Assembly (NCBI GenBank): GCA_003313425.1
Contig: NHZP01000063.1
Coordinates: 1 to 64,000, forward strand
Reading direction: 5' to 3'
Length of the DNA: 64,000 bases
DNA from: Pseudopyrenochaeta lycopersici
Lineage: Eukaryota > Ascomycota > Dothideomycetes > Pleosporales > Pseudopyrenochaetaceae
In this document: positions 1-49,993 of the stretch, one piece after another
Numbering within the stretch: the first letter of the stretch is position 1
Layout: each line of letters opens with the position of its first letter
Made by a program: the position numbers and the translations under genes
The notes under the pieces: generated by a model
The model's database searches: none
Told to the model about the DNA's origin: nothing
The model's input: only the letters and a program-made list of their open reading frames with translations

Positions 1-498
1 CGGGTACATATTGCGAAAGAATTGGACCTCGTAAGCTCATCTCTGAAGACTACTTAGTACGCTACTAATCCCTGTATAGCTCAAGAATTCCCACCCCATC
101 ATCGGTATCGTAGTTCTCGTCTTGCTCGTTTTCCAACCCTGTTTGGCTTCTTACACCACGCACTCTTCAAAAGACATCAGAGACGCACGTTGTGGTCTTA
201 CGCACATATCTGGCTTGGTCGTATCGCCATCGTCCTAGGAATTCTCAATGGTGGCCTTGGCCTCAAGCTTGCGGACTCGTCGGGCAGAAGTTCTAAGGGA
301 GGTATTATTGTATATGGAGCTATCGCTGGATTAGTTTTTCTGGGTTGGGCAACAGCGTCTATTGTTGGTGAGAGGCGGAGGAAGACCAGGGCTGTTAATG
401 CGCCCAAGTACACAGAATCCTCTGGTGGCAGAACCGACACCACTGTTATGGATGACATTCCACTCCCTGTGGGTGGTCGTTACGCACCAAAGCATTAG
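1..498 (+). pseudogene. 3' part of a DOMON-cytochrome b561 gene, left-arm copy
   Basis: This matches the last 30 nt of exon 3 (1-30), an intron (31-79) and exon 4 (80-498) of the gene at 48540-49993. Exon 4 encodes the last helices of a b561 domain (a HIWLGR segment with a histidine, then GLVFLGWATAS) and a charged cytosolic tail. Compared with the right-arm copy it lacks one C near 137, which breaks the frame early in exon 4, and three bases near 402. Both changes lie in short GC runs and may be consensus errors. Whether the 5' part exists to the left of the window cannot be seen. Confidence 0.8.
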
Positions 499-737
499 GA
501 CTAGTGAAATCCCTTCTTTCTTAAAGAGCGGAGTTGAGGGAGAACTGCCCAGGAAATATAGATACCTATACAAGGTGTGAGGGAACGATCAGGTGACTTT
601 CACGCTTTATGAATAGTCCCACTTTATGAATATTGTGAAAATAGCTTAAGTCAGAGCTTTCCTTACGAATCTCTTCCTCTCCTTGTAAACAATTACTTTG
701 CCCAAGTCGCATTTGACCTCGTTCGTGTTCTTGTACC
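499..737. other. Intergenic stretch, nothing recognised
   Basis: This holds the b561 3' flank and about 130 bp next to the left end of the hAT element. On the minus strand the last part has a short open frame without a recognisable domain. It is mirrored at 48301-48539. Confidence 0.5.
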
Positions 738-3700
738 CAGTGTGGCCAATGGATGGAAGCTTGTCCATCCAATCCGCTTCGTTTTGGATTGGATTGGATT
801 GGATGGAGGAATCCAATGAATCCAAATCGAAATTACTGCCGCCACATTGTGGTGGAGATTAGAGAACGAGGCATCATAGTGCCAATGCGTAAGCCATATT
901 TGCTAGCTAAGCGGAATGGCTGATTCCGAGCGAATTTCTTCGCATTATCGTGAACATAATTCTGAGTACGGGGCGACAGATACTCCGTGCATAAGCCACT
1001 GGAATCATAGCTATTTGCTTCCTTATAAAACGAGCCCAAGGTGACGAAGTCTGAGTTGCAAGGCGTTGAAGGTGTCGCACCTTTTCAAAAAAAAATTAGC
1101 TCTGGATCTAACATGCCTCATTAAGTTATTGTTCTTGTTTTGCTCTCCGCAGCAGTTATCACTACTGTTATTACTGCGTCACATGACATCACTATTACCT
1201 CTTACGGTTGACGCTTTACGGTCATTTGAGGGGGAGAAGGTTGCTCTATCTGCTCCTTCAACATGCTCTGCACTGTCTGCACCACTCTCCGCGGTAGGGC
1301 CCTGAAATAATTCTCTTGCACTTATACTAACCTTTCTTTGAATAGGATGGCGAGCTTTCGTCGCCAATGAGTCCCATTATACCGATTCGGACCACGATTG
1401 GTCATGGGTGCAATGGAGGTTGCTTCCCGGGCATTCAATCCCTTTGTCACGTTCAATGAAGAGGATTAGAGGATGGTTCTGGGCGTTTGGCGCGCCGACA
1501 GAGGAGCAGGGGACGAAGAAAAGATTCTGGCTCTGTAAGGAATGTCATCTGGCTGGGAAAGGTGGCCATTACAACACCGACAATGGTACCTCTGCCGTGA
1601 ATACACATTTACGAGATATCCATCATCTAGCCTGGGATAAAGACAACAAAGAAGTTATCAATGATGCCTCAAAGAGGTGGCTCTGGACAATGAAAGGCAA
1701 GCCCGCTCCCTCTACGGCGGATGCTGCTAGCCTCGACGCGTCTATTCCTCGAGAACAGGAAATCATGCACTATTTAGCGCTCGAATTTGATACGAATCGA
1801 TTCCAGAGGCTTCTCGTTCGTTGGATGTCTATGACAATGTCTCCTTTCGTCAAGTTGATAGTGCAGCGTTCCGTGAGCTCATTAGATACCTCTCTTCCCG
1901 TGCGGAACCTCCAATGCCTTCCCATACCACGATTTCGGCCTGGGTAGCTCATGGTTTTGAGCTTCATAAAGCGACAGTGAAGAAGGAGTTGAAAGATGCT
2001 TCGAGTAAAGTCCACTTCGCATTTGATCTCTGGACCTCCGGAAACCTATTATCCCTCAACGGCATTGTCGCTCACTTTCTCAACAAGGACTTTAAGGCTC
2101 GATGCATCCTTCTCTCGACTCCAGAGCAACTGGGCTCACACGCAGGTATCAACATCGCCGATGGGGTCAGCAAGGTTATAGACGACTTTGAGGTCATGAA
2201 CAAGATTGGATACCTTTGTGCTTGACAACGCTTCGAACAACGATACGGCAATGGATGCTCTTGCAGAGACGTATGGTTTTGATGCTATTAAACGACGCCT
2301 TCGCTGCTCTGGCCATATTATCAATCTTATTGCTCGCCATCTTCTTTTCGGCGTGGACCCAGATTTATTCGAAATGGAGGATCAGATGTCAAAAAACACC
2401 AAATAGAGTTTGAGGCATTGGGAGAAAAAACGGACCGGTCGGCAAACTTCACAACCTGGTTGTTTGGACGTATTCAAGCCCCCAACGACGAGCTAGATGG
2501 GTCGCAGGTAAGTTTACTGCCCTTCCGGCAAATTCAGTTCTTAATGTACCGTAGCACAGCAGAAATATATCGAAGAATCCGATGGTGAGGCCGATAAAGC
2601 TGACCTCAAGGCTTACGAGCTCTGCCGAGACAACAATACACGCTGGAATAGCGTCTATAATATGCTCCGTCGTGCGAATAAACTCCGCAATGCTCTCGAT
2701 TATTGGCTTGAATCAGAAGAGAGACTGATCAAACGGAACAATGCCAAGGGTACAAAGTTGCCAGTTGAGGATGCAGCAATCTGCAAGGACATCTTCACAG
2801 ATAGGTTAACGGAAAAGGACTGGGACATACTCTCCGAGTATGAAAGACTGCTCAGGCCATGTTATGAGGCGACGCTAGATCTACAGGGTCGACCAGGTGA
2901 TGGTACATCCAGCGGGCTGACAAACGTCATTCAGGATATCGAGTATATTCTCGAAGAGCTGACTGCTGTTTATGCCCTCATACGAATCTGCAGCAGAAGA
3001 CATTATTCAAGGGGAATGGCATTTCAAGGCCCAAATCAAGCTTGCAATCGACAAAGCTCAACAGTATTACCAGAAGCTTGGAGACTCGCCTGTCTACCTT
3101 GCCGCCGTCGTTCTTGATCCTGCGAAGAACTGGGATTATCTCGAAGCGTTCTGGAACAAGCAGCCGAAGTGGATCAAAGACGGGCAGAGAGCAGTCAAAA
3201 GGCTCTGGCTTGACAGCTACAAGCAACAGCCCATTTCAGATGCCCTTTCGCCCCAAAAGAAGAACCCGCGCGATGGTGAGCCCACGGGCATTCAAGCGTA
3301 TCGAATGAGAGGTATCAAAGCTGCGCAGACAGCTAACCGTGAGAAGAGAAAGGATGAATATGACCGCTATTGCACTCAAGGGCAGATCGAGTGTGACGAG
3401 CCAATCGTCTGGTGGACAACGACTGGCAAAGCCCAGTATCCGCAGCTTGCGCAGATGGCTATCGATATCCTCAGTATTCCGGCAATGAGCGACGAGCCAG
3501 AAAGAATATTTAGTAGATTGGGCATGATGATAACTGACCGCCGCAATCATCTACAGTGTAGTACAGCACAGGCAGCACAGTGTCTGTATTCATGGGACAA
3601 GGCCGGTATTATCGACATAAGGCAAAAGCCGGTTGAATGAGAAAAGACGTCATATTTTGTAGCAAGATCTCTACATTATACTTTAGATTAATCCATTCTA

Positions 3701-3884
3701 ACTATTTTCTAACGAAATTATGCCGTTTGTAGAGATTTCCATAATACACATTGATCACCCGCTCAGACCACTATGGCTAAGGCTGAATGGATTGAACTAG
3801 ATTGGATTTGGATTGGACTGGATACCCCTGGATTTTGTGGCGTTGGATTGGATCGACGATCCGTTCCATCCATTGGCCACACTG
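738..3884 (+). mobile_element. hAT transposon, decayed, left-arm copy
   Basis: The ends are inverted: CAGTGTGGCCAATGGATGGA at 738 and its reverse complement finishing at 3884, the CAGTG start being usual for hAT. Just inside each end are tandem GGATT repeats (about 783-805 and 3787-3852), typical of transposase-binding subterminal repeats. The 8-bp flanks (CTTGTACC and CACACATC) do not match, so no target duplication remains. The right flank is copia RNase H coding sequence and the left flank is unrelated, which suggests a deletion or recombination at one end. The mirrored copy is 45157-48300. Confidence 0.85.
1183..3640 (+). pseudogene. hAT transposase, left-arm copy, several frameshifts
   Basis: This corresponds to the three-exon transposase described at 45399-47855. 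Exon equivalents are 1183-1293, 1346-2507 and 2555-3640. Compared with the right-arm copy it has single-base changes near 1347 (-C), 1824 (-T), 2213 (+C), 2428 (+G) and 2974 (+C), each breaking the frame, plus the in-frame TAG at 2404-2406 that both copies share. All five private changes are one-base indels, some in short runs, so they may be consensus errors rather than biological decay. Confidence 0.85.
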
Positions 3885-4617
3885 CACACATCATCGACCA
3901 AGAAGAGCCAGACTTCTTTGGTGCCACCGACGCTTCATACGCTGATCATAAGGCCACTCGGAAGAGCCCACAAGGCTACATATTCCTCCTATTTGGTGGC
4001 CCTACTTACTGGAAAGCGACACTTCAACGGTGCGTCACCAAATCAACCACTGAAGCCGAGCTGATTGCCGCATCTTCTGCTGGCACTGAACTGCTCTGGT
4101 GGTGGAGACTATTCAAAGATTGTCACGGGGACCACGCGACACGCTAGCAGGAACATGACGATCCGGAGCGGATCAACACAGAACCGTGATCCTGAAGGGA
4201 TCACGGACGTGAAACCCTTTTCTCCTTCTTCGTGCTACGTCTTGTATCTAGTCTCGTCCCTAGCTAAGCTAATACTACTGCTATTCGTTACTCGAGCATC
4301 GCTGCTGAACCAGGTCGCAGCCGAACCCTGACAAAGATATTGAATTCGATCCTAGCAACGAACGGGTCCTATACTGCGACAACCAGCAAACAACCCGCCT
4401 ATTTACTGCTGCTACGCCACGCCTCAAAACATCACTTCGACACGTTGATATACATCATCACTGGCTACATCAAGAAACACAGTCAAACAGAATTAGTCTT
4501 ACTTACATGCCAACGAACTGTCAGCCAGCTGACGGCCTTACAAAACTTCTACCTCGTCAGAGGCATGAAAATTGGGTATCACTTTTACATTTCAAAGCAT
4601 TTCTTACAAAACAGTGA
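3885..4617 (+). pseudogene. Ty1/copia polyprotein C-terminus (RNase H), split by a solo LTR
   Basis: The 3893-4120 part encodes a copia RNase H core: FFGATDASYAD with a catalytic Asp, a KSPQGYIFLL strand, and STTEAELIAAS with the catalytic Glu. Removing the LTR at 4121-4333 and one AAGAT repeat rejoins the frame exactly (...LFKD then IEFDPSNERVLYCDNQ...) and it continues through a PADGLTKLLPR segment, the usual copia C-terminus, to TGA at 4615-4617. Reverse transcriptase and integrase are absent because the hAT element abuts at 3884. The single extra G near 4127 lies within the LTR. Confidence 0.88.
4121..4333. repeat. Solo LTR with 5-bp target duplication AAGAT
   Basis: A 213-bp block starts TGTCACGG and ends CCCTGACA (TG...CA ends). 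It is flanked by AAGAT at 4116-4120 and 4334-4338. It interrupts the copia RNase H frame, and excision restores it. Inside is a perfect 9-bp hairpin, CCGTGATCC/GGATCACGG. No internal retroelement sequence is present, so this is the usual outcome of recombination between two LTRs. The right-arm copy (44709-44920) is one G shorter. Confidence 0.9.
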
Positions 4618-5117
4618 GCTTCTACAAAGTAAGTACTCTTCCTGGTTTTTCCTATGTGGTTTTTACAGGTTTAACGAGGCTGTACACCTTATTATGCTCT
4701 AACCCACTACCTACACTTTTATGTATTTTAGGTATACCGTCAACCTCTACACAGAACGGAAGCAATCAGGACCTCAGTGCTAGCTCTAGGAGACGTCCGA
4801 CTACTGAGGACGCCCGTAGTACAGAGCGAGGTCCACCAACACCGCGGCGGCGGACGATCCCCACCTGGCACTGCTCCAACTAAGCGGCTACCCACCGCAA
4901 CTATACAAGCAGCTCTGCCCCTATACGGGGCAGGGGGTGGACTATGATCACATCAGCTTCTACATACATTCAAATCTAAAGGGGGTGTGTAAGCCTAGGA
5001 CGCCTACAGTCACGTGGTTTACTACAGACTAATCTGTCCATTCATAAGTTAAGTAATGACGCTAATTATTCATGCAGACAAGGTCACATGACCATTTCAT
5101 TCATCGCCCATCCTGAC
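4618..5117 (+). other. Copia 3' untranslated region, purine tract and probable LTR start
   Basis: Downstream of the copia stop lies a non-coding stretch ending in AAAGGGGGTG (4978-4987), a likely polypurine tract. TGTAAGCC follows at 4988 as a plausible 3' LTR start. I cannot fix the LTR's right end; a CTGACA at about 5111-5116 is one candidate. The segment 5081-5117 (GACAAGGTCACATGACC...) also occurs in reverse complement at 15855-15897, so it may belong to another repeat. Confidence 0.45.
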
Positions 5118-6916
5118 ACAGCTATGTATACATAATCTTAAATTCAACATGCTGCGGTTAAGAAATCGCGTGAATAAGTTAGGAGATGTGTTTTGCTGGG
5201 GTGGCCAGGTAGCCCGAAACCAGGTAGACCGGCTTAATTGTGAAATTGCGAACAAAGATTTCTCAGGCAATTCTGGTGGGCCACAGGCAAGATCTCGGAA
5301 ATTTGGGTGGCCCCCCAAGCTCGTTTCTCAGACGTTCCGCTAAAAGGATGAATCAGCCACATCCTTGTAAGGCAAGCTTAGCGATCAGATCGTGGACGTA
5401 TAAACGTATAACCGATCCAGACCAGACCATTTCGCTTCCTAATCAGGTCAGTTGCTCAGCCACCACGCTAGCGCGTAACTCCAGAACGAAGCCGGAAGGC
5501 GACCCACAATACGAAGCATAGAAAGGCCGCGAAGTGTGGAAATCAGCAGAGGTATCTGGATGCTCAGTTGTACGGAGGAACAGGCGCGCCATAAGCGTTG
5601 TTGCCCGGATGTCATGTGGGGCCCAGTGTGACTAACCAAAAGAGGTAGCATCAAGATTGTGTTTTGCTATTACATTGAAGGTACAGCCCATAAGTATTGT
5701 CAGCTCCAAAAATCTATGCACAGTTAGGTTCCCCTTCTTCCTACTACAATATGTGCAAAAGAGAAACAACAACACCTTAACTTGAGATATATTTAAGCAA
5801 CTATTTCACATTTTTTCAAAGTGGAGAATAGTTGAGAGTGGAGAGACTTGCAGATCTAAATTCTGATTGTGCGTAGGCTACCCGCTGGAGCGAACAATAC
5901 TTCTGAGTTGTACTTACAGCATTTACCTACGTAAGGTGATTGCAGGTCGTGTATTCAGGGGTAGTCAGACCAATCACCTGTTCAGTAATCACAGTACTTC
6001 GACATATCTAGCTACATATTGGACAATGCTCATTGACATTTATTTGGGCTAGTGGGTAGGGAGTTCTGATTTGGTGCTTGGCAGGGACAGCCAGCCAGAT
6101 GTCAGATTGTCAGATACAAGGTGCGTGTCCGATGAGAGAGCATGCTGTTAGATCTACAGCACAGCAGCGAGGGTACGCGATACTGTATTGTAGTACAAAG
6201 CTCGGGTGTAACCACCTGGCACACACACACACCCCACATTAAAAGGAGAAAAACAGGGAACAAGAGAAAAATCAATAAATCCTCATCCATGCTTCTGACC
6301 AAAAAAGATTTATTAAATTCTGACACCAGAAAGACGTCATGCATGCGGCTGAGCTGAGGCAGAAATAGAACTCTAACTCTCGTATGACTGCGTCTTTTAG
6401 CTTTCGGGCTAATTTGAGACCACGCGCTGGGATGAACGGGGCTGAACTGGAGGGAATACGTAACCAAAAAGTTTTGAACACGGTGATCAAGCTGATTATT
6501 GTGCTATGGTAGAGAGCTTAGCTAACGGTACTAATAATTCAAGTACAGGTGTTGAGAGCAACTGTAGACAGTAAGGGGATAGAGTGATTCCTGTTGGTCA
6601 TCATTCTACAGCAAGTAAATTGCCAATCCTGAACAAGAATCAAAGGGAGTCTCTAGCGCAACGATATAGTAGCTTTGCAAACATGCTTGCACGCAATGCC
6701 CAAGTGGGGCCCTGAGAACATTTAGAGCAGGCATGCTTGATAATCTCAAGACGCTTGGCTAGTCATACGTAATTCCGCTTAGCAGGAAGCCCCTGGGTTT
6801 ACACAAGTTACCTACTGGCGCAAGCATAAATGAAGGGGAAGCCTCTTCCTCAGATCAAACATCACCCAACTTCCCTCGTTCCCACTTCATCATCTCATTG
6901 CCGCTACAAAACCAAA
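5118..6916. other. 1.8-kb gene-poor stretch with a CA microsatellite
   Basis: No convincing gene is seen on either strand; open frames are under 125 codons and resemble nothing I recognise. A short (CA)7 run lies at 6220-6233. The last part is the tannase upstream region, with a weak AT-rich GCATAAATG at about 6822-6830. Small indels relative to the right arm occur near 5275 (-G) and 5735 (-C); none follow in this arm. Confidence 0.5.
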
Positions 6917-8733
6917 ATGAGGCTCAGCTCCATTTCGAGTGGTGTCCTCGCTCTCGCCACATGTGCTCACAGTAGCAAGGCAGACGGCTCAGCTAGACTT
7001 GCCACCTATAACGGATATGCCGATGTAACCGCAAGCAGTTTCAACGCATCGTGTACCGCATTAGCAAAGTCGATCGCAAAAGAGAACATCGTCGTCAACT
7101 TCGCGGAATATGTTCCTCCAGGCACAAACATCACCTTCCCTAACGCAGACCCGACTTGTATGCGCCCTTTCCAAATCGTCACGACAGATCTATGCCGGGT
7201 GAATATGGATGTAGCAACATCTGATAAAAGTGGACTTGTGGTTGAGGTCTGGCTTCCAAAGAACTGGACGGGGCGGTTTTTGAGCACCGGGAACGGTGGA
7301 TTGGGTGGCTGTAAGTCCTGATGCATCTTTTGTTTCAGAAGAGTCATGTACTTAACTCTGGTCTCAATACGTAGGCATCCAGTTCGAGGACCTGGACTAT
7401 ACGGCTAGCCAAGGTTTTGCTGCAGTGGGCACAAATAATGGACACGATGGCCAATCAGGCGAGGCATTCTTAGACAACGACGAGGTTGTTGCCGATTTCG
7501 TCTTTAGAGGGTATGTTTTCCACCTCTTCTATGCTTTATACAGGATTTCAAAATAGAGCTAATTGAATCTATAGTATCCATACTGGTGCAGTTGTCGGGA
7601 AGTCAGTCACAGAGCTCTTCTATGGATCTAAGCACAGCAAATCGTACTTTCTCGGTTGCTCTTCAGGAGGTCGTCAAGGATTCAAAGCTATACAAGACTT
7701 TCCAGACGACTTCGACGGCCTCGTTATTGGAGCACCCGCTCTTGCTTTCAATAGCATGGCTGCATGGACCGGTAATTTTATTGTCATCACCGGGACAAAT
7801 ACTTCCGAAAGATTCCTTCCCTTGGACTTATGGACTGTCGTTAACGCAGCGGTGATGGACCAATGTGACGAGATCGACGGCGTGAAAGACGGCATAATCG
7901 AGGATCCTAATCTTTGCATATTCAATGCATCAGCGTTGTTATGTGCGCCCGACGCGAGCACTGGGTGCCTTACAAATGCCCAAGTCACTACGGTAAATAG
8001 GGTCTTCAGCGAGCTCATTGGGGAAGATGGATCTTCGATTTACCCGCGCATGCAACCTGGGAGTGAGGGCCTTGCGTCGATTGTATACTATAATGGTGTG
8101 CCTTCTCCCTTCACAGTAAGTCACTCTGCCCTTTGTTTGGTAGTAGGGATATAGGACTAAATCCTTTGATAGGACTGGCTTAAGTTTGCTGTCTTCGCCG
8201 ATCCTAACTGGGACCCCACAACTTTAACCCCCGAAAATATTACATTCGCCCGACAGCAGAATCCTTCTAATGCAGAGACGTTTAACACTGATCTCTCGGC
8301 CTTCCGTTCCACAGGTGCCAAAGTTCTTCACTATCACGGTTTGCAGGACGGGATCATCACCTCTGAGATTAGTGAAAGGTATTATGAGGCAGTCAGGAAA
8401 GCAATGGGCTTGTCATTTGGAGAAATGGATGACTTTTATCGCTACTTCAAGGTTCCTGGTATGGATCACTGCAGCGCCGGACCTGGCGCATGGCAAATTG
8501 GGCAAACAGCTGTCGGGACGTCTCAGTTCACTAGCGAGGATAATGTCCTGATGCGCGTAGTGGATTGGGTGGAGAACGGCGCAGCCCCAGAAACCATCAG
8601 GGGAACCAAGTTTGTCAATGATACCGCTTCCCTTGGGGTTGACTTTATCCGAAAGCATTGCAAATATCCGAAACGGAGCGTTTTCAATGGTAATGGCAAT
8701 CCCGATGAGGAGAACAGCTGGGAGTGCCAGTAG
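6917..8733 (+). CDS. Tannase / feruloyl esterase family enzyme, secreted
   Basis: Four exons (6917-7310, 7375-7510, 7575-8115, 8173-8733) with GT..AG introns join to 543 residues, normal for the fungal tannase family (AoFaeB and tannases). Known members hydrolyse ester bonds of plant phenolics such as ferulate or gallate. An N-terminal signal-like segment (MRLSSISSGVLALATCAHSS) indicates secretion. The nucleophile motif GCSSGGRQG, the Asp in GLQDG and the His in MDHCSAG are present, with the paired cysteines of the family's CS-D-HC arrangement. Several N-x-S/T sites fit a glycoprotein. The ATG at 6917 is chosen because it starts the signal peptide; the in-frame ATG 87 bp upstream does not. 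The substrate cannot be decided from sequence. Confidence 0.9.
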
Positions 8734-9128
8734 TAAGATACGATGGTGGTTGTAAGCCGCTCTTAGGAAACCTTCTTAACAAGATCTTGGCGGAGGAACT
8801 GTAGTATAGACTTTCTATTTTCCCTTTCTTACCTAACATTAGGTGTATTAACAAACAAAAAAAGAGGTGGTTATGAGACGCAGAGCACTTTAGAGTTCAG
8901 GGAAGAGCTTTGATTGTTTTGGTTTTGTTTTTCTGTTTAACAGCTTACATATCAATGAATCATAACGTGTTCCACCAGTCAGTGGGCTACACCATTCAGT
9001 GGGCAGCCCCCAAACCCACCAAAAATCAAGAAAACGGACCCGTGCAATCGTAGCAACAACCTCTTATATCAACCTAAAAATATAAAATCTTTGAAACCCT
9101 AGCTTTCTGTACTTATTTAATAACTCTA
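8734..9128. other. Tannase 3' flank with a pogo-type terminal repeat remnant
   Basis: From a TA at 8963-8964 the sequence ACGTGTTCCACCAGTCAGTG follows, with a second similar block (CACCATTCAGTGGGCA) just downstream and then CAGCCCCCAAACCCACC. This resembles the end of the MITE at 61343-61737 (ACGTGTTCCACAAG..., then CAGCCCCAAAACCC). I read it as one end of a decayed pogo/Fot1-type element into which the intact element at 9129 later inserted. The rest is AT-rich with no gene. Confidence 0.5.
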
Positions 9129-10991: not shown

Positions 10992-10993
10992 TA

Positions 10994-11347
10994 CGACGGA
11001 AGTCCCGAAAGTATAAAAGGCAAGAGAACACAGTAGAAAAAAACAAGAAAAACACATAATCCATTATCGCAATCATCAATTTCTAAAAAAGCGCATTTCA
11101 GCATTTTATCTGACACCTGGTCGGCATAGGATATATAAGTGAAATTCCATAGACACCTACAAAAATCAACCCAGTCTTCATTCTTCTCCGCACACGCACT
11201 TTAGATGATCTATCTTACTTTAGACCTATGGGGGTAGTTACACGGCGACTAGAAGCCGCTTGTACATTCTGGAGCTAGAGAAAAAGACGCGTGGTGTTCA
11301 ACAACGAAAGACGGCGGAACCAAAACTGGTATCTGGAAAGGCGTGGC
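10994..11347. other. P450 3' flank, no gene
   Basis: This lies between the pogo element and the P450 stop codon. It is A-rich and has no open frame of interest. It probably holds the P450 3' untranslated region. Confidence 0.5.
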
Positions 11348-16305: not shown

Positions 16306-16310
16306 CTGTA

Positions 16311-35475: not shown

Positions 35476-36030
35476 AGTTGAGACACGGGGGTTGAAGTGG
35501 CCGTGGATGGTTTGATATGACTGGGGAGTAGAGATTGATTGATCTTTTTACTGGGAATTACGGTAGGCCTTGGAGATGCCTTTAGCTATACATTCAAGCC
35601 AGTATTTAAAGTACAGGATTTCTGATCAATTAGGACGATCTTGGTGTTTGGCAGGGCCTTGGCGATCCCCGCTCACACTTTACATGCAAATACATCTTAA
35701 CCGAATAATCACAAGCACCGTGGCCAGCGCCTAAACCCAGTTCTCCGCAAGACATTCGGACCGGAGAAAAAGAGGGTCTTAACAAATTATGCTCCTTAAG
35801 CAGGCACGTAGGAACTGTTTCGGTCAATAATTTCGGACCGATCAGCAGTCACATTAGATGGAATGGCCGCAAGTCAAGTGCCAAGTAAATAGTCAAGCAG
35901 TTCCGAGAAGAACCGATAACTTGGTGTATGATTAATCAGAGGACTACTGCCTTAGCTTATTTAAGACGAAACTTGGCCTCTATATCGGAAACTCAGTATT
36001 GGTGTAGACGAAAGTATCAACCTTAACACT
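35476..36030. promoter_or_regulatory. Shared upstream region of MFS and P450, right-arm copy
   Basis: This mirrors 13010-13564 with the same TATA-like sites. Here the MFS partner is disrupted by the hAT element, so only the P450 side can give a full product. Confidence 0.45.
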
Positions 36031-37692: not shown

Positions 37693-38048
37693 GCCACGCC
37701 TTTCCAGATACCAGTTTTGGTTCCGCCGTCTTTCGTTGTTGAACACCACGCGTCTTTTTCTCTAGCTCCAGAATGTACAAGCGGCTTCTAGTCGCCGTGT
37801 AACTACCCCCATAGGTCTAAAGTAAGATAGATCATCTAAAGTGCGTGTGCGGAGAAGAATGAAGACTGGGTTGATTTTTGTAGGTGTCTATGGAATTTCA
37901 CTTATATATCCTATGCCGACCAGGTGTCAGATAAAATGCTGAAATGCGCTTTTTTAGAAATTGATGATTGCGATAATGGATTATGTGTTTTTCTTGTTTT
38001 TTTCTACTGTGTTCTCTTGCCTTTTATACTTTCGGGACTTCCGTCGTA
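37693..38048. other. P450 3' flank, right-arm copy
   Basis: This mirrors 10992-11347. No gene is seen. Confidence 0.5.
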
Positions 38049-39911: not shown

Positions 39912-39913
39912 TA

Positions 39914-40306: not shown

Positions 40307-42123
40307 CTACTGGCACTCCCAGCTGTTCTCCTCATCGGGATTGCCATTACCATTGAAAACGCTCCGTTTCGGATATTTGCAATGCTTTCGGATAAAGTCA
40401 ACCCCAAGGGAAGCGGTATCATTGACAAACTTGGTTCCCCTGATGGTTTCTGGGGCTGCGCCGTTCTCCACCCAATCCACTACGCGCATCAGGACATTAT
40501 CCTCGCTAGTGAACTGAGACGTCCCGACAGCTGTTTGCCCAATTTGCCATGCGCCAGGTCCGGCGCTGCAGTGATCCATACCAGGAACCTTGAAGTAGCG
40601 ATAAAAGTCATCCATTTCTCCAAATGACAAGCCCATTGCTTTCCTGACTGCCTCATAATACCTTTCACTAATCTCAGAGGTGATGATCCCGTCCTGCAAA
40701 CCGTGATAGTGAAGAACTTTGGCACCTGTGGAACGGAAGGCCGAGAGATCAGTGTTAAACGTCTCTGCATTAGAAGGATTCTGCTGTCGGGCGAATGTAA
40801 TATTTTCGGGGGTTAAAGTTGTGGGGTCCCAGTTAGGATCGGCGAAGACAGCAAACTTAAGCCAGTCCTATCAAAGGATTTAGTCCTATATCCCTACTAC
40901 CAAACAAAGGGCAGAGTGACTTACTGTGAAGGGAGAAGGCACACCATTATAGTATACAATCGACGCAAGGCCCTCACTCCCAGGTTGCATGCGCGGGTAA
41001 ATCGAAGATCCATCTTCCCCAATGAGCTCGCTGAAGACCCTATTTACCGTAGTGACTTGGGCATTTGTAAGGCACCCAGTGCTCGCGTCGGGCGCACATA
41101 ACAACGCTGATGCATTGAATATGCAAAGATTAGGATCCTCGATTATGCCGTCTTTCACGCCGTCGATCTCGTCACATTGGTCCATCACCGCTGCGTTAAC
41201 GACAGTCCATAAGTCCAAGGGAAGGAATCTTTCGGAAGTATTTGTCCCGGTGATGACAATAAAATTACCGGTCCATGCAGCCATGCTATTGAAAGCAAGA
41301 GCGGGTGCTCCAATAACGAGGCCGTCGAAGTCGTCTGGAAAGTCTTGTATAGCTTTGAATCCTTGACGACCTCCTGAAGAGCAACCGAGAAAGTACGATT
41401 TGCTGTGCTTAGATCCATAGAAGAGCTCTGTGACTGACTTCCCGACAACTGCACCAGTATGGATACTATAGATTCAATTAGCTCTATTTTGAAATCCTGT
41501 ATAAAGCATAGAAGAGGTGGAAAACATACCCTCTAAAGACGAAATCGGCAACAACCTCGTCGTTGTCTAAGAATGCCTCGCCTGATTGGCCATCGTGTCC
41601 ATTATTTGTGCCCACTGCAGCAAAACCTTGGCTAGCCGTATAGTCCAGGTCCTCGAACTGGATGCCTACGTATTGAGACCAGAGTTAAGTACATGACTCT
41701 TCTGAAACAAAAGATGCATCAGGACTTACAGCCACCCAATCCACCGTTCCCGGTGCTCAAAAACCGCCCCGTCCAGTTCTTTGGAAGCCAGACCTCAACC
41801 ACAAGTCCACTTTTATCAGATGTTGCTACATCCATATTCACCCGGCATAGATCTGTCGTGACGATTTGGAAAGGGCGCATACAAGTCGGGTCTGCGTTAG
41901 GGAAGGTGATGTTTGTGCCTGGAGGAACATATTCCGCGAAGTTGACGACGATGTTCTCTTTTGCGATCGACTTTGCTAATGCGGTACACGATGCGTTGAA
42001 ACTGCTTGCGGTTACATCGGCATATCCGTTATAGGTGGCAAGTCTAGCTGAGCCGTCTGCCTTGCTACTGTGAGCACATGTGGCGAGAGCGAGGACACCA
42101 CTCGAAATGGAGCTGAGCCTCAT
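40307..42123 (-). CDS. Tannase / feruloyl esterase family enzyme, right-arm copy
   Basis: Exons 42123-41730, 41665-41530, 41465-40925 and 40867-40307 encode the same 543-residue secreted enzyme as 6917-8733, with GCSSGG, GLQDG and MDHCSAG. Splice sites are unchanged. Confidence 0.9.
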
Positions 42124-44424
42124 TTTGGTTTTGTAGCGGCAATGAGATGATGAAGTGGGAACGAGGGAAGTTGGGTGATGTTTGATCTGAGGAAGAGGCT
42201 TCCCCTTCATTTATGCTTGCGCCAGTAGGTAACTTGTGTAAACCCAGGGGCTTCCTGCTAAGCGGAATTACGTATGACTAGCCAAGCGTCTTGAGATTAT
42301 CAAGCATGCCTGCTCTAAATGTTCTCAGGGCCCCACTTGGGCATTGCGTGCAAGCATGTTTGCAAAGCTACTATATCGTTGCGCTAGAGACTCCCTTTGA
42401 TTCTTGTTCAGGATTGGCAATTTACTTGCTGTAGAATGATGACCAACAGGAATCACTCTATCCCCTTACTGTCTACAGTTGCTCTCAACACCTGTACTTG
42501 AATTATTAGTACCGTTAGCTAAGCTCTCTACCATAGCACAATAATCAGCTTGATCACCGTGTTCAAAACTTTTTGGTTACGTATTCCCTCCAGTTCAGCC
42601 CCGTTCATCCCAGCGCGTGGTCTCAAATTAGCCCGAAAGCTAAAAGACGCAGTCATACGAGAGTTAGAGTTCTATTTCTGCCTCAGCTCAGCCGCATGCA
42701 TGACGTCTTTCTGGTGTCAGAATTTAATAAATCTTTTTTGGTCAGAAGCATGGATGAGGATTTATTGATTTTTCTCTTGTTCCCTGTTTTTCTCCTTTTA
42801 ATGTGGGGTGTGTGTGTGTGCCAGGTGGTTACACCCGAGCTTTGTACTACAATACAGTATCGCGTACCCTCGCTGCTGTGCTGTAGATCTAACAGCATGC
42901 TCTCTCATCGGACACGCACCTTGTATCTGACAATCTGACATCTGGCTGGCTGTCCCTGCCAAGCACCAAATCAGAACTCCCTACCCACTAGCCCAAATAA
43001 ATGTCAATGAGCATTGTCCAATATGTAGCTAGATATGTCGAAGTACTGTGATTACTGAACAGGTGATTGGTCTGACTACCCCTGAATACACGACCTGCAA
43101 TCACCTTACGTAGGTAAATGCTGTAAGTACAACTCAGAAGTATTGTTCGCTCCAGCGGGTAGCCTACGCACAATCAGAATTTAGATCTGCAAGTCTCTCC
43201 ACTCTCAACTATTCTCCACTTTGAAAAAATGTGAAATAGTTGCTTAAATATATCTCAAGTTAAGGTGTTGTTGTTTCTCTTTTGCACATATTGTAGTAGG
43301 AAGAAGGGGGAACCTAACTGTGCATAGATTTTTGGAGCTGACAATACTTATGGGCTGTACCTTCAATGTAATAGCAAAACACAATCTTGATGCTACCTCT
43401 TTTGGTTAGTCACACTGGGCCCCACATGACATCCGGGCAACAACGCTTATGGCGCGCCTGTTCCTCCGTACAACTGAGCATCCAGATACCTCTGCTGATT
43501 TCCACACTTCGCGGCCTTTCTATGCTTCGTATTGTGGGTCGCCTTCCGGCTTCGTTCTGGAGTTACGCGCTAGCGTGGTGGCTGAGCAACTGACCTGATT
43601 AGGAAGCGAAATGGTCTGGTCTGGATCGGTTATACGTTTATACGTCCACGATCTGATCGCTAAGCTTGCCTTACAAGGATGTGGCTGATTCATCCTTTTA
43701 GCGGAACGTCTGAGAAACGAGCTTGGGGGGCCACCCAAATTTCCGAGATCTTGCCTGTGGCCCCACCAGAATTGCCTGAGAAATCTTTGTTCGCAATTTC
43801 ACAATTAAGCCGGTCTACCTGGTTTCGGGCTACCTGGCCACCCCAGCAAAACACATCTCCTAACTTATTCACGCGATTTCTTAACCGCAGCATGTTGAAT
43901 TTAAGATTATGTATACATAGCTGTGTCAGGATGGGCGATGAATGAAATGGTCATGTGACCTTGTCTGCATGAATAATTAGCGTCATTACTTAACTTATGA
44001 ATGGACAGATTAGTCTGTAGTAAACCACGTGACTGTAGGCGTCCTAGGCTTACACACCCCCTTTAGATTTGAATGTATGTAGAAGCTGATGTGATCATAG
44101 TCCACCCCCTGCCCCGTATAGGGGCAGAGCTGCTTGTATAGTTGCGGTGGGTAGCCGCTTAGTTGGAGCAGTGCCAGGTGGGGATCGTCCGCCGCCGCGG
44201 TGTTGGTGGACCTCGCTCTGTACTACGGGCGTCCTCAGTAGTCGGACGTCTCCTAGAGCTAGCACTGAGGTCCTGATTGCTTCCGTTCTGTGTAGAGGTT
44301 GACGGTATACCTAAAATACATAAAAGTGTAGGTAGTGGGTTAGAGCATAATAAGGTGTACAGCCTCGTTAAACCTGTAAAAACCACATAGGAAAAACCAG
44401 GAAGAGTACTTACTTTGTAGAAGC
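42124..44424. other. Gene-poor stretch plus copia 3' end, right-arm copy
   Basis: This mirrors 4618-6916. It has the GT/CA microsatellite at 42807-42820 and, near 44054-44064, the complement of the copia purine tract. No gene is recognised. Confidence 0.45.
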
Positions 44425-45156
44425 TCACTGTTTTGTAAGAAATGCTTTGAAATGTAAAAGTGATACCCAATTTTCATGCCTCTGACGAGGTAGAAGTTTT
44501 GTAAGGCCGTCAGCTGGCTGACAGTTCGTTGGCATGTAAGTAAGACTAATTCTGTTTGACTGTGTTTCTTGATGTAGCCAGTGATGATGTATATCAACGT
44601 GTCGAAGTGATGTTTTGAGGCGTGGCGTAGCAGCAGTAAATAGGCGGGTTGTTTGCTGGTTGTCGCAGTATAGGACCCGTTCGTTGCTAGGATCGAATTC
44701 AATATCTTTGTCAGGGTTCGGCTGCGACCTGGTTCAGCAGCGATGCTCGAGTAACGAATAGCAGTAGTATTAGCTTAGCTAGGGACGAGACTAGATACAA
44801 GACGTAGCACGAAGAAGGAGAAAAGGGTTTCACGTCCGTGATCCCTTCAGGATCACGGTTCTGTGTTGATCCGCTCCGGATCGTCATGTTCCTGCTAGCG
44901 TGTCGCGTGGTCCCGTGACAATCTTTGAATAGTCTCCACCACCAGAGCAGTTCAGTGCCAGCAGAAGATGCGGCAATCAGCTCGGCTTCAGTGGTTGATT
45001 TGGTGACGCACCGTTGAAGTGTCGCTTTCCAGTAAGTAGGGCCACCAAATAGGAGGAATATGTAGCCTTGTGGGCTCTTCCGAGTGGCCTTATGATCAGC
45101 GTATGAAGCGTCGGTGGCACCAAAGAAGTCTGGCTCTTCTTGGTCGATGATGTGTG
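44425..45156 (-). pseudogene. Ty1/copia RNase H remnant, right-arm copy
   Basis: This mirrors 3885-4617. Here the frame stays open through the solo LTR for 185 codons because the extra G of the left arm is absent, but that is chance: LTR removal is what rejoins the copia frame. Confidence 0.85.
44709..44920. repeat. Solo LTR, right-arm copy
   Basis: It is 212 bp, with the duplication ATCTT/ATCTT (AAGAT on the other strand) on both sides. It differs from the left-arm LTR by a single G. Confidence 0.88.
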
Positions 45157-48100
45157 CAGTGTGGCCAATGGATGGAACGGATCGTCGATCCAATCCAACG
45201 CCACAAAATCCAGGGGTATCCAGTCCAATCCAAATCCAATCTAGTTCAATCCATTCAGCCTTAGCCATAGTGGTCTGAGCGGGTGATCAATGTGTATTAT
45301 GGAAATCTCTACAACGCATAATTTCGTTAGAAAATAGTTAGAATGGATTAATCTAAAGTATAATGTAGAGATCTTGCTACAAAATATGACGTCTTTTCTC
45401 ATTCAACCGGCTTTTGCCTTATGTCGATAATACCGGCCTTGTCCCATGAATACAGACACTGTGCTGCCTGTGCTGTACTACACTGTAGATGATTGCGGCG
45501 GTCAGTTATCATCATGCCCAATCTACTAAATATTCTTTCTGGCTCGTCGCTCATTGCCGGAATACTGAGGATATCGATAGCCATCTGCGCAAGCTGCGGA
45601 TACTGGGCTTTGCCAGTCGTTGTCCACCAGACGATTGGCTCGTCACACTCGATCTGCCCTTGAGTGCAATAGCGGTCATATTCATCCTTTCTCTTCTCAC
45701 GGTTAGCTGTCTGCGCAGCTTTGATACCTCTCATTCGATACGCTTGAATGCCCGTGGGCTCACCATCGCGCGGGTTCTTCTTTTGGGGCGAAAGGGCATC
45801 TGAAATGGGCTGTTGCTTGTAGCTGTCAAGCCAGAGCCTTTTGACTGCTCTCTGCCCGTCTTTGATCCACTTCGGCTGCTTGTTCCAGAACGCTTCGAGA
45901 TAATCCCAGTTCTTCGCAGGATCAAGAACGACGGCGGCAAGGTAGACAGGCGAGTCTCCAAGCTTCTGGTAATACTGTTGAGCTTTGTCGATTGCAAGCT
46001 TGATTTGGGCCTTGAAATGCCATTCCCCTTGAATAATGTCTTCTGCTGCAGATTCGTATGAGGCATAAACAGCAGTCAGCTCTTCGAGAATATACTCGAT
46101 ATCCTGAATGACGTTTGTCAGCCCGCTGGATGTACCATCACCTGGTCGACCCTGTAGATCTAGCGTCGCCTCATAACATGGCCTGAGCAGTCTTTCATAC
46201 TCGGAGAGTATGTCCCAGTCCTTTTCCGTTAACCTATCTGTGAAGATGTCCTTGCAGATTGCTGCATCCTCAACTGGCAACTTTGTACCCTTGGCATTGT
46301 TCCGTTTGATCAGTCTCTCTTCTGATTCAAGCCAATAATCGAGAGCATTGCGGAGTTTATTCGCACGACGGAGCATATTATAGACGCTATTCCAGCGTGT
46401 ATTGTTGTCTCGGCAGAGCTCGTAAGCCTTGAGGTCAGCTTTATCGGCCTCACCATCGGATTCTTCGATATATTTCTGCTGTGCTACGGTACATTAAGAA
46501 CTGAATTTGCCGGAAGGGCAGTAAACTTACCTGCGACCCATCTAGCTCGTCGTTGGGGGCTTGAATACGTCCAAACAACCAGGTTGTGAAGTTTGCCGAC
46601 CGGTCCGTTTTTTCTCCAATGCCTCAAACTCTATTTGGTGTTTTTTGACATCTGATCCTCCATTTCGAATAAATCTGGGTCCACGCCGAAAAGAAGATGG
46701 CGAGCAATAAGATTGATAATATGGCCAGAGCAGCGAAGGCGTCGTTTAATAGCATCAAAACCATACGTCTCTGCAAGAGCATCCATTGCCGTATCGTTGT
46801 TCGAAGCGTTGTCAAGCACAAAGTATCCAATCTTGTTCATGACCTCAAAGTCGTCTATAACCTTGCTGACCCCATCGGCGATGTTGATACCTGCGTGTGA
46901 GCCCAGTTGCTCTGGAGTCGAGAGAAGGATGCATCGAGCCTTAAAGTCCTTGTTGAGAAAGTGAGCGACAATGCCGTTGAGGGATAATAGGTTTCCGGAG
47001 GTCCAGAGATCAAATGCGAAGTGGACTTTACTCGAAGCATCTTTCAACTCCTTCTTCACTGTCGCTTTATGAAGCTCAAAACCATGAGCTACCCAGGCCG
47101 AAATCGTGGTATGGGAAGGCATTGGAGGTTCCGCACGGGAAGAGAGGTATCTAATGAGCTCACGGAACGCTGCACTATCAACTTGACGAAAGGAGACATT
47201 GTCATAGACAATCCAACGAACGAGAAGCCTCTGGAATCGATTCGTATCAAATTCGAGCGCTAAATAGTGCATGATTTCCTGTTCTCGAGGAATAGACGCG
47301 TCGAGGCTAGCAGCATCCGCCGTAGAGGGAGCGGGCTTGCCTTTCATTGTCCAGAGCCACCTCTTTGAGGCATCATTGATAACTTCTTTGTTGTCTTTAT
47401 CCCAGGCTAGATGATGGATATCTCGTAAATGTGTATTCACGGCAGAGGTACCATTGTCGGTGTTGTAATGGCCACCTTTCCCAGCCAGATGACATTCCTT
47501 ACAGAGCCAGAATCTTTTCTTCGTCCCCTGCTCCTCTGTCGGCGCGCCAAACGCCCAGAACCATCCTCTAATCCTCTTCATTGAACGTGACAAAGGGATT
47601 GAATGCCCGGGAAGCAACCTCCATTGCACCCATGACCAATCGTGGTCCGAATCGGTATAATGGGACTCATTGGCGACGAAAGCTCGGCCATCCTATTCAA
47701 AGAAAGGTTAGTATAAGTGCAAGAGAATTATTTCAGGGCCCTACCGCGGAGAGTGGTGCAGACAGTGCAGAGCATGTTGAAGGAGCAGATAGAGCAACCT
47801 TCTCCCCCTCAAATGACCGTAAAGCGTCAACCGTAAGAGGTAATAGTGATGTCATGTGACGCAGTAATAACAGTAGTGATAACTGCTGCGGAGAGCAAAA
47901 CAAGAACAATAACTTAATGAGGCATGTTAGATCCAGAGCTAATTTTTTTTTGAAAAGGTGCGACACCTTCAACGCCTTGCAACTCAGACTTCGTCACCTT
48001 GGGCTCGTTTTATAAGGAAGCAAATAGCTATGATTCCAGTGGCTTATGCACGGAGTATCTGTCGCCCCGTACTCAGAATTATGTTCACGATAATGCGAAG

Positions 48101-48300
48101 AAATTCGCTCGGAATCAGCCATTCCGCTTAGCTAGCAAATATGGCTTACGCATTGGCACTATGATGCCTCGTTCTCTAATCTCCACCACAATGTGGCGGC
48201 AGTAATTTCGATTTGGATTCATTGGATTCCTCCATCCAATCCAATCCAATCCAAAACGAAGCGGATTGGATGGACAAGCTTCCATCCATTGGCCACACTG
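45157..48300 (-). mobile_element. hAT transposon, right-arm copy, one stop from intact
   Basis: The element is 3144 bp and mirrors 738-3884, with the same CAGTGTGGCC ends. The 8-bp flanks do not match here either. Confidence 0.85.
45399..47855 (-). pseudogene. hAT transposase with a single in-frame TAG
   Basis: Three exons fit (47855-47745, 47692-46531, 46483-45399), the first intron having a good TACTAAC branch site; together they give 786 codons. A BED-type finger (FWLCKECHLA... then HLRDIHH), FAFDLWTSGN, FVLDNASNND, CSGHIINLIA, DNNTRWNS and the hATC motif ILSIPAMSDEPERIFSR are all in frame. The only defect is TAG in place of a sense codon about 230 bp before the end of exon 2 (46632-46634), possibly CAG to TAG. 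A C-to-T change of this kind is what repeat-induced point mutation makes, but one site is no proof. Confidence 0.87.
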
Positions 48301-48539
48301 GGTACAAGAACACGAACGAGGTCAAATGCGACTTGGGCAAAGTAATTGTTTACAAGGAGAGGAAGAGATTCGTAAGGAAAGCTCTGACTTAAGCTATTTT
48401 CACAATATTCATAAAGTGGGACTATTCATAAAGCGTGAAAGTCACCTGATCGTTCCCTCACACCTTGTATAGGTATCTATATTTCCTGGGCAGTTCTCCC
48501 TCAACTCCGCTCTTTAAGAAAGAAGGGATTTCACTAGTC

Positions 48540-49993
48540 CTAATGCTTTGGTGCGTAACGACCACCCACAGGGAGTGGAATGTCATCCATAACAGTGGTG
48601 TCGGTTCTGCCACCAGAGGATTCTGTGTACTTGGGCGGCGCATTAACAGCCCTGGTCTTCCTCCGCCTCTCACCAACAATAGACGCTGTTGCCCAACCCA
48701 GAAAAACTAATCCAGCGATAGCTCCATATACAATAATACCTCCCTTAGAACTTCTGCCCGACGAGTCCGCAAGCTTGAGGCCAAGGCCACCATTGAGAAT
48801 TCCTAGGACGATGGCGATACGACCAAGCCAGATATGTGCGTAAGACCACAACGTGCGTCTCTGATGTCTTTTGAAGAGTGCGTGGTGTAAGAAGCCAAAC
48901 AGGGGTTGGAAAACGAGCAAGACGAGAACTACGATACCGATGATGGGGTGGGAATTCTTGAGCTATACAGGGATTAGTAGCGTACTAAGTAGTCTTCAGA
49001 GATGAGCTTACGAGGTCCAATTCTTTCGCAATATGTACCCCGAGCCCAAAGCCGGCGACGTACACAAGATATGAGAAAACTTGGAACGCCCCATGGGCCC
49101 ATACCAGGCCAGGGAATGAGGCAAGGCGGATGGCAATTGCGCCAGCAGGGAAGAAGATGATAAAGGCGAGAGACGCAAGCACTCCGTGAGCGATGAGTAA
49201 CTTCCTCCGCTTACCAGTACTGCCAGATGCGCCAATTGGAGTGAAACTATTACTGGAATTACCGCCGCCGCCACCAGGGCCCCCACTCCAAGTACCAGAC
49301 AGGGTGGCATTTACGAGCGGGTTGACGCTGCTACCTCCCTTAGCATTGGTATAGTCCCAGGAAAAGGCGGCATGGTCGTTATGCTGGCGGATTGAAGCTG
49401 ATTGATCGTCGGAATTCTTGGGTCCCCCGGATACCTGGACAGCGTATATCCAGTTACCACTCCCAGATCTGAAGTCTGCGGTGCCGCCAGACCAGCTGTT
49501 ACAGTTCGAGCCTGAACCTCAATAAGCCTGGAACCCCCACAATGTGCCCATTCACTTACATTTGACATTTGCAGTCATGACCCCGTTGGTAACACCAGAG
49601 CCCTCGAGAAGCTCCACCTGAGCGTTCCCGTTGAAGCTCGGCATCGAGTAGCCAGTTCCTCTCCGTGGTGACAGAGTTACGTTGTTACCATCTGCGGAAG
49701 TATACACGATAAAGATGTTGGAGCCTGACATCCCCCGTCCCTGGCCAAGAGCGACCCATTCAAAGCTGCTTGGACCGGATATCTGAAAGAAAACATCTCC
49801 AGTTCCTGAAGATGCAGTGCTCTGTGGAATGTTGAGCCTGAAGCAGACATTAGTTGACGGACAAACGCTAGCAACTTGCGCTGCCGCGTGAGATGCTACT
49901 TATGGTTAGCTCAGGATCGAGTTATCATCACGATGTTTACTTACCGAGTGCGAACAGGCCAGACGCGAAGAGTGCTCTACTATTACTCCTCAT
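48540..49993 (-). CDS. DOMON-cytochrome b561 membrane oxidoreductase
   Basis: Four exons (49993-49945, 49895-49560, 49511-49012, 48962-48540) encode 435 residues. A signal peptide (SRALFASGLFALASHAAAQ) precedes a CDH-type cytochrome/DOMON domain (VCFRLNIPQS..., WVALGQGRGMSGSNIFIVY). A glycine-rich linker (GGPGGGGG) leads to a b561 domain with about five helices and histidines in LLIAHGVLA, WAHGAFQVF, HPIIGIVVL and SYAHIWLGR, which can bind two hemes. This fold passes electrons across the plasma membrane to outside acceptors such as ferric iron or secreted oxidases. The palindrome boundary falls in exon 3 (49042). This is the only complete copy in the window. Confidence 0.9.

What the first reader, a model, noticed from the sequence alone, without database searches (positions are those of the whole stretch)
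1..49042. A near-perfect palindrome of two arms over 22 kb with a 1.25-kb spacer
The left arm (1-22521) and right arm (23771-49042) match in reverse complement with one substitution in the inner 16.8 kb. Each arm carries the same genes and transposons at mirrored places. If real, it gives two identical copies of a P450 and a tannase gene and is a very recent inverted duplication, for example from template switching, fold-back at a break, or a breakage-fusion-bridge event near a chromosome end. If false, it is an assembly error of unusual form.
Basis: seen in the sequence. Interest (0 to 1): 0.92.

Follow-up and report, generated by a model that had tools for sequence, protein, structure and literature searches.

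The report
Recent near-perfect palindrome, older mutated twin
In a fungal genome assembly a 49-kb stretch reads as a near-perfect mirror image of itself, likely made by a recent chromosome break and fusion, and a second mirror-image copy of part of it elsewhere carries mutations of the kind left by the fungal anti-repeat defence, so the pair would show a young and an old stage of one process.

Summary
In detail: 1-22521 and 23771-49042 match in reverse complement around a 1249-bp spacer. Three things were missed. The window starts at base 1 of its contig (C63). A 2740-bp hAT transposon sits only in the right arm, with an 8-bp target duplication and an empty site in the left. Eleven 1-3-nt indels crowd the left arm's outer 5.7 kb and look like contig-end read errors (6 of 6 testable are derived in the left arm). 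So 49042 is where comparison stops, not a proven end.

Two strands of one molecule cannot give arms that differ by a transposon. The assembly also holds a second palindrome of the P450-MFS part (contigs C79/C64, 7-kb overlap) with both flanks present; 90 of its 91 arm differences are transitions, mostly CpA/TpG (RIP). A 6.66-kb identical core suggests later gene conversion. Its axis is an inverted-repeat element absent from C63, so the two palindromes most simply arose independently.

Best reading: a real, recent inverted duplication by sister-chromatid fusion or fold-back. Read support, outer end and joint mechanism are unproven.

The parts
1..22521 (+). left arm; begins at contig base 1
22522..23770 (.). 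single-copy spacer (1249 bp), part of a repeat also found together with the inner right arm on C56 and C70
23771..49042 (-). right arm as far as it can be compared; the contig goes on without a break
22521..22522 (.). left junction: the new joint; no other place found in the assembly
23770..23771 (.). right junction: older continuous sequence (C56 91.9-93.0%, C70 90.6%)
1..5730 (.). contig-end stretch of the left arm with 11 indel sites against the right arm; 6 of 6 testable are derived in the left arm
32489..35228 (+). hAT transposon (2740 bp) present only in the right arm; Dimer_Tnp_hAT domain in frame 34387-35103; a copy at 100% (rounded) on C28
32481..32488 (.). 8-bp target-site duplication of the hAT element, first copy (second copy 35229-35236)
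13804..13811 (.). matching empty site in the left arm, single copy CTCCCATG
15181..15181 (+). the only substitution between the arms; left-arm G is derived (C79 and C64 have T)
11348..13075 (-). cytochrome P450 reading frame, left arm
35965..37692 (+). cytochrome P450 reading frame, right arm, same protein
6830..8733 (+). tannase-like gene, left arm: three open frames (6830-7321, 7567-8154, 8173-8733); the Pfam tannase match is to the middle one, the first had none, the third was not scanned
40307..42210 (-). the same tannase-like frames, right arm
13493..14446 (+). MFS transporter frame (317 aa, first half of the MFS profile), uninterrupted in the left arm; not shown to be a complete gene
31846..35547 (-). 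the same MFS frame in the right arm, split by the hAT element
   Evidence: outer coordinate by mirror arithmetic
16310..21542 (+). Gypsy-type LTR retrotransposon with identical 174-bp LTRs, left arm
24750..29982 (-). the same Gypsy-type element, right arm
9127..10993 (+). DDE_1 (Fot1/pogo-like, name recalled) transposon, left arm
38047..39913 (-). the same DDE_1 transposon, right arm
737..3886 (+). older hAT family element (hAT-1), left arm; frames broken by the contig-end indels
45156..48300 (-). hAT-1 element, right arm, long open frames (Dimer_Tnp_hAT in 45399-46493)
   Evidence: coordinates by mirror arithmetic

Best explanation
This is a near-perfect palindrome that is likely a real, recent inverted duplication, inferred to have formed when a chromosome broke inside a transposon-rich stretch and its two copies were joined head to head with unequal loss of their ends. 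Inferred steps: (1) the chromosome carried tannase - Fot1-like element - P450 - MFS - Gypsy - repeat, reading towards a break near the present 22.5 kb. (2) After replication one copy kept the repeat down to the present 22522 and the other was trimmed to the point that is now 22521 (equal to 23771 on the right). (3) End joining of the two sisters, or fold-back priming of one strand, made the left junction; the 1249-bp spacer is the part kept by one side only. (4) Later a hAT element jumped into the right-arm MFS frame, leaving the left one uninterrupted. Shown directly: the arms, the spacer, the continuity of the right junction in other repeat copies, the hAT insertion with target duplication and empty site, and the contig-end indels. 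Inferred: that one DNA molecule carries both arms, the break-and-fusion step, and the recency. I put sister-chromatid fusion slightly ahead of fold-back priming because no inverted repeat is seen at the joint itself, but the original sequence left of 22522 is unknown and the two cannot be separated here.
For: Arms differ by a 2740-bp hAT element with 8-bp TSD and a single-copy empty site; a fold-back read, being two strands of one molecule, cannot produce that. The hAT element has a copy at 100% (rounded) on C28, so it moved recently. Small indels sit at 136-5730 (plus the G-run at the contig start) and none in the next 16.8 kb (chance of such crowding 3e-7), so more than one molecule likely covers the inner left arm. 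At 6 of 6 testable indel sites, of 11, the right arm agrees better with 10 of 10 hAT-1 copies examined. The same contig-end pattern appears on C64: its 5 indel sites against C79 all lie within 102-798 bp of its end. The spacer is genomic and continuous with the right arm in other repeat copies. A second palindrome of part of the locus (C79/C64) has both flanks present, a 7-kb overlap without mismatch, and arms differing at 91 of 10086 sites, so this genome holds such structures. Recency: 1 substitution in 22.5 kb, against about 1-2% between the right arm's hAT-1 and ten other copies, and no RIP-type difference between the C63 arms.
Against: No reads were available. The left arm starts at the contig end, and no partner contig carrying its non-transposon outer part near 100% was found. 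PMC12870357 (passages) reports that artefact fold-backs can recur at one place, typically with two reads, and shows one with about 2 kb between the halves, so neither a few reads nor a spacer alone would prove the joint. If the culture were mixed for the hAT insertion, a chimeric joint between two nuclear types could mimic this. The single substitution lies at a T-run/G boundary and could be a consensus error. Low divergence could also come from gene conversion in an older palindrome, which palindrome 2 suggests can happen here. No telomere repeat is listed on C63. An imperfect 10-nt inverted pair lies 34 and 16 bp inside the two spacer ends, a point for fold-back over fusion, though not at the joint.
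Confidence: 0.72

Rival explanations
1. Assembly artefact: one or a few fold-back (hairpin) or chimeric long reads made the contig turn back on itself at its end.
For: The duplicated arm lies at a contig start and fades out with error-like indels. Fold-back reads were about 0.55-0.6% of nanopore genomic reads in PMC12870357, which also quotes 1-4% and up to 20-30% from another study, notes recurrence at one place, and shows a case with about 2 kb between the halves (passages). Whole-genome amplification makes artificial palindromes (PMC6218980, start of abstract in the listing).
Against: Arms differ by a hAT insertion with target duplication. The halves are 1249 bp apart in genomic terms, and the spacer is continuous with the right arm in other repeat copies. 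16.8 kb of the left arm has no indel. A diverged palindrome of part of the locus exists with both flanks present. PMC12870357 found virtually no fold-backs in the PacBio HiFi data it examined, but the method used for this assembly is unknown to me.
Confidence: 0.13
2. Two nuclear genotypes, with and without the hAT element (heterokaryon, diploid or mixed culture), were wrongly joined through the repeat-rich centre; each genotype has a single arm.
For: Would explain the hAT presence/absence difference. Repeats at the centre occur elsewhere.
Against: Only 1 substitution in 22.5 kb between the supposed haplotypes. The left junction was found at no other place, so a chimeric read would still be needed.
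Confidence: 0.08
3. An old palindrome whose arms are kept alike by arm-to-arm gene conversion, as on the human Y chromosome, rather than a young duplication.
For: Palindrome 2 has a 6.66-kb mismatch-free core between diverged edges (28 mismatches on its outer side, 63 on its inner side) and a strand pattern pointing to conversion from the C64 arm to the C79 arm.
Against: C63 arms are alike over the whole visible length, inner edges included, where palindrome 2 is most diverged. The hAT insertion has not been converted. Palindrome 2 is centred on a 185-bp inverted-repeat element that C63 lacks, so one shared old palindrome is not the simplest reading.
Confidence: 0.12
4. Fold-back priming at a short inverted repeat near a break (hairpin-capped end, then replication), rather than fusion of sister chromatids.
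For: This route is shown in yeast (PMC10622511, abstract and passages). Palindrome 2 has its axis inside a short element with inverted ends, the kind of seed that route uses. In C63 a 10-nt pair (90%) lies 34 and 16 bp inside the spacer ends (22556-22565 / 23745-23754).
Against: That pair is not at the joint, and 26 such pairs, most of them longer, lie in the same 2.2 kb (25 listed). The sequence once left of 22522 is unknown; the C56 and C70 flanks show no evident match to the left-arm end (by eye).
Confidence: 0.35

Closest known systems
Large palindrome on accessory chromosome 14 and sister-chromatid-fused chromosome 17 of Zymoseptoria tritici (PMC3681731, passages read)
   Same: Large fungal palindrome in transposon-bearing sequence; fusion of sister chromatids giving a nearly doubled chromosome and proposed breakage-fusion-bridge cycles.
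   Different: Here the joint is placed to the base in the assembly, with a 1249-bp spacer and a transposon difference between arms. The organism is by protein similarity probably a leotiomycete (P450 71-72% to Rhexocercosporidium and Cadophora), and a second palindrome of part of the same locus exists.
Break-induced inverted duplications of yeast (PMC10622511, abstract, outline and passages read)
   Same: Inverted duplication around a short central region, expected dicentric product, stabilised by secondary events.
   Different: Seen in laboratory strains with an induced break; here natural, cause unknown, outer end not seen.
Gene-converting palindromes of the human Y chromosome (recalled; cited within the PMC3681731 passages)
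   Same: Long near-identical arms with a short spacer. Palindrome 2 shows a conversion-like core.
   Different: C63 identity is better explained by youth; no conversion test was possible on C63 itself.
Fold-back read artefacts of long-read sequencing (PMC12870357, passages read)
   Same: Mirror-image sequence at a contig end.
   Different: Arms differ by a transposon insertion with target duplication; halves 1249 bp apart in genomic sequence.

Membership tests
Fold-back read artefact | Both arms come from one molecule, so no structural difference between arms | tested here: not met
   2740-bp hAT element with TSD in one arm only
Fold-back read artefact | Second half maps within 200 bp of the end of the first (default criterion of PMC12870357) | tested here: not met
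   1249 bp apart; the same paper shows an artefact with about 2 kb of sequence between the halves
Fold-back read artefact | Supported by one or few reads only | not testable with these tools
   no reads; indirect: no indel in 16.8 kb of the inner left arm
Breakage-fusion-bridge / sister-chromatid fusion | Head-to-head duplication with a single new joint and short unique centre | tested here: met
   left junction found nowhere else, right junction continuous in other copies; fold-back priming would give the same
Breakage-fusion-bridge / sister-chromatid fusion | Duplication runs from the joint towards the centromere, 2x depth, later break or telomere capture at the outer end | not testable with these tools
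   left arm ends at contig base 1; no TTAGGG x4 listed on C63
Fold-back priming at inverted repeat | Short inverted repeat at the joint in the unrearranged locus | tested here: inconclusive
   none at the C63 joint, one 10-nt pair 34 and 16 bp inside the spacer ends; ancestral left side unknown; palindrome 2 axis lies in a 185-bp inverted-repeat element
Y-type gene-converting palindrome | Arms more alike than expected from the age of the duplication | tested here: inconclusive
   suggested for palindrome 2 (6.66 kb with 0 mismatches between diverged edges); no age marker for C63
RIP-mutated duplication (palindrome 2) | C-to-T changes mainly in CpA | tested here: met
   90 of 91 arm differences are transitions, 71 in CpA/TpG
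RIP-mutated duplication (C63 palindrome) | C-to-T changes mainly in CpA | tested here: not met
   the only substitution between the C63 arms is a G/T transversion
hAT transposon insertion | 8-bp target duplication, terminal inverted repeats, hAT dimerisation domain | tested here: met
   CTCCCATG on both sides, inverted ends CAGTGTTGTCGTCGAT / ATCGACGACAACGCTG, PF05699

The most novel reading that the evidence does not exclude
One P450-MFS locus in this fungus has been turned into a palindrome at least twice, independently, with axes a few hundred bases apart in the same transposon nest. It is then a natural palindrome-forming hotspot caught at two ages: C63 fresh, unmutated and already hit by a transposon in one arm; C79/C64 older, inactivated by RIP laid down along one chromosomal strand and re-homogenised by arm-to-arm gene conversion. 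C63 may further be the visible end of a much larger mirror chromosome that reaches well beyond 49042.
Probability: 0.35. Interest if true: 0.78.

Novelty: new variant of a known kind. Interest (0 to 1): 0.62.

Why it matters
Fungi with RIP are expected to mutate duplications, and large palindromes are expected to be unstable. A young RIP-free palindrome beside an older RIP-mutated palindrome of part of the same locus gives a before-and-after pair. It would let one ask when RIP acts on linked inverted repeats, whether it runs along one strand through both arms, and whether gene conversion later spreads or erases its mutations. It also shows how a gene block could be doubled in one step and how one copy can then be split by a transposon while the mirror copy stays uninterrupted.

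Tried and rejected
Chromosome-end origin: C63 is absent from the listed TTAGGG x4 places (the list is cut off but runs in contig order past C63 to C89); not supported. A partner contig for the left arm's outer flank: none found near 100% for the non-transposon parts with queries 1-3000, 48500-52500 and 3700-9100; query 11100-15000 found a partial 100% copy on C41, followed with 10500-11700. One ancestral palindrome shared by C63 and C79/C64: not the simplest reading, because the C79 axis is an inserted element that C63 lacks; a stretch of about 35 bp missing from C79 and from one C56 fragment is not explained by either reading. Reading the 91% identity of C63 and C79 as age: rejected, because of 468 differences 430 are transitions, with T or A in C79 at 383 and in C63 at 47. 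Calling the central repeat a LINE with 5' truncation: dropped; some of its frames look hAT-like or endonuclease-like by eye, but the two frames scanned gave no Pfam match. Rfam and tRNA scans found nothing; 11 tandem-repeat rows did not bear on the question. A paper search for the assembly by size and contig number found none. Script one search failed on a file name, and one search gave no output for the same reason; both were redone (and for the indels).
Full report
WHAT WAS CHECKED. BLASTN of the window on itself and a full alignment of the arms confirm the palindrome: 1-22521 against 23771-49042, with spacer 22522-23770. The arms differ by one substitution (15181), eleven indel sites of 1-3 nt, all at 136-5730 of the left arm (plus one G fewer in the G-run at the contig start), and a 2748-nt insertion in the right arm. 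One search places the window at C63:1-64000 of an assembly of 62.7 Mb in 188 contigs; C63 is 245,916 bp. The left arm therefore starts at the contig's first base.

WHO IT IS. Pfam matches: tannase, P450, MFS, a DDE_1 transposase (Fot1/pogo-like, name recalled), a Gypsy-type polyprotein, and two hAT elements.

DIFFERENCES BETWEEN THE ARMS. (a) The 2740-bp hAT element 32489-35228 has 8-bp duplications CTCCCATG on both sides, and the left arm has the single-copy site. It splits the MFS frame in the right arm, while the left frame is open for 317 aa; that frame matches only the first half of the MFS profile, so I do not claim a complete gene. A copy at 100% (rounded) lies on C28:487982-490721. (b) The small indels are in the outer 5.7 kb of the left arm only. 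Six of the eleven lie in hAT-1, and at 6 of 6 the right arm agrees better with 10 of 10 hAT-1 copies examined; for the other five no relative was at hand. Indels of 1-3 nt without substitutions, at a contig end, look like uncorrected read errors. The overlap of C79 and C64 repeats the pattern: its 5 indel sites all lie 102-798 bp from the C64 end, and the C79 version aligns to the opposite arm without any indel. (c) At 15181 the left arm has G where C79 and C64 have T.

WHAT THIS MEANS FOR 'REAL OR ARTEFACT'. A fold-back read contains two strands of one molecule, so it cannot yield one arm with and one without a transposon; (a) argues strongly against it. Absence of indels in 16.8 kb of the left arm suggests more than one read. 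Against this, PMC12870357 (passages) says fold-back artefacts can recur at one place, typically with two reads, and shows one with about 2 kb between its halves. The left arm reaches 13.8 kb beyond the hAT-empty site and then stops. The simplest account (inference) is that reads can be assigned to the left arm only if they reach the empty site or the spacer, so coverage fades outward and the contig ends. Then 49042 is not a breakpoint, and the palindrome may go on. No other contig was found to carry the non-transposon outer part of the arm near 100%; the nearest is a tannase-region relative on C31 at 90%.

THE JOINTS. Spacer plus inner right arm recur as one repeat on C56 (22529-24299 in two pieces, 91.9-93.0%) and C70 (22581-24304, 90.6%); no copy with the left junction was found. 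The left joint is therefore the new one. It lies within 7 bp of the left end of the C56 match. No inverted repeat lies at the joint itself; one imperfect 10-nt pair lies 34 and 16 bp inside the two spacer ends, among 26 pairs in 2.2 kb (25 listed).

A SECOND PALINDROME. C79:167069-174117 equals C64:269579-262529 with 0 mismatches and 5 gaps, so C79 and reversed C64 are two sides of one palindrome. Its arms run from C79 158376 and C64 258048, where the flanks become unrelated, to a 45-nt centre. Its arms match window 11116-16306 and 21545-22500 at 90-95% and lack the Gypsy and DDE_1 elements. The innermost 185 bp (168395-168579) is a short element with inverted ends, found in whole or part at five other places, on C42, C28 (twice), C70 and C25. 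C63 is uninterrupted at the corresponding point. So the two palindromes have different axes; the inner arm ends are about 150 bp apart on the right-arm scale (23771 against 23621). They most simply formed independently. That the inverted-repeat element seeded palindrome 2 is inference.

RIP AND CONVERSION IN PALINDROME 2. Of 91 differences in 10086 aligned sites, 90 are transitions, 71 of them in CpA/TpG context and 17 in CpG, against 24.6% of cytosines being in CpA (binomial p 4e-27). C63 could polarise 49 of the 91, all at the inner edge. Changes private to the C79 arm there are C>T 23 and G>A 1; those private to the C64 arm are G>A 22, C>T 2 and T>C 1. In chromosome orientation the two main classes fall on the same strand. 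From 160051 to 166711 there is no mismatch, although in the 4732 sites that map to C63 both arms share 341 C/G-to-T/A changes (256 G>A, 85 C>T), besides 35 changes the other way and 28 transversions. That ratio fits the C64 arm's edge (29:13, p 0.45) and not the C79 arm's edge (8:34, p 2e-12). I read this as conversion from the C64 arm to the C79 arm after RIP. Caution: sites are linked, and an assembly collapse over the core is not excluded. Both P450 copies there carry stops (17 in the full copy, 11 in the 358 codons of the second copy present on C79). Against C63, T or A stands in C79 at 383 sites and in C63 at 47, so C63 escaped most of this. Ten hAT-1 copies differ from the C63 copy by about 1-2%; summed over the ten, 96 of 265 transitions are in CpA (copies share sites), a mild excess at most. 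RIP has therefore probably been weak or absent lately, and its absence on C63 does not by itself date the palindrome.

KNOWN WORK. Croll et al. 2013 (PMC3681731, passages) describe a large palindrome on Z. tritici chromosome 14 and fused sister chromatids of chromosome 17, and predict that RIP would degrade such a duplication. Al-Zain et al. 2023 (PMC10622511, outline, abstract and passages) set out sister-chromatid fusion and fold-back priming as two routes. PMC12870357 (passages) gives rates of fold-back artefacts. PMC12543289 (passages) reports loss of RIP genes in one clade of leotiomycetes; whether this fungus belongs there is unknown. Searches with palindrome, gene conversion, inverted duplication and RIP terms listed no report of a young and a RIP-mutated palindrome of one locus side by side; of most papers I saw only title and start of abstract, not every paper that held the terms was listed, and the library is partial.

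VERDICT. The mechanism of the joint, the outer end and physical proof remain open. After re-checking the calls I left all odds as they were.

Noticed in passing
C41:65289-66927: A third, partial copy of the P450 3' half and downstream sequence (window 10978-12616) at 99-100% identity on another contig, ending inside the terminal repeat of the DDE_1 element.
   Followed up: partly
C31:460994-464501: A tannase-region relative at 90% (76% and 86% in two further pieces); no P450 match was listed there.
   Followed up: no
L032 (C44:321000-328000): Dinucleotide indices 1.35 and 0.87, the range of strongly RIP-mutated sequence (thresholds recalled), unlike the six other loci and the window parts computed.
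   Followed up: no
C79:167069-174117 and C64:262529-269579: The two contigs overlap by 7 kb without mismatch and belong together through the second palindrome.
   Followed up: yes
window 14899-15060: A roughly 160-bp insertion in both arms relative to C79/C64; its first 101-102 bp have copies at 100% at C63:77211, C63:108982 and C70:10135; likely a MITE.
   Followed up: no
window 54704-54784 and 61341-61739: A self-inverted repeat (81 nt, 86%) and a pair of inverted repeats (92 columns, 88%) near a weak DDE_3-like frame at 60604-61092 (below the Pfam cut-off), likely transposon remnants.
   Followed up: no
C79:158376: On the C79 side the outer end of the second palindrome falls at the edge of a sequence also found on C25 and C117 (97-98%).
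   Followed up: partly
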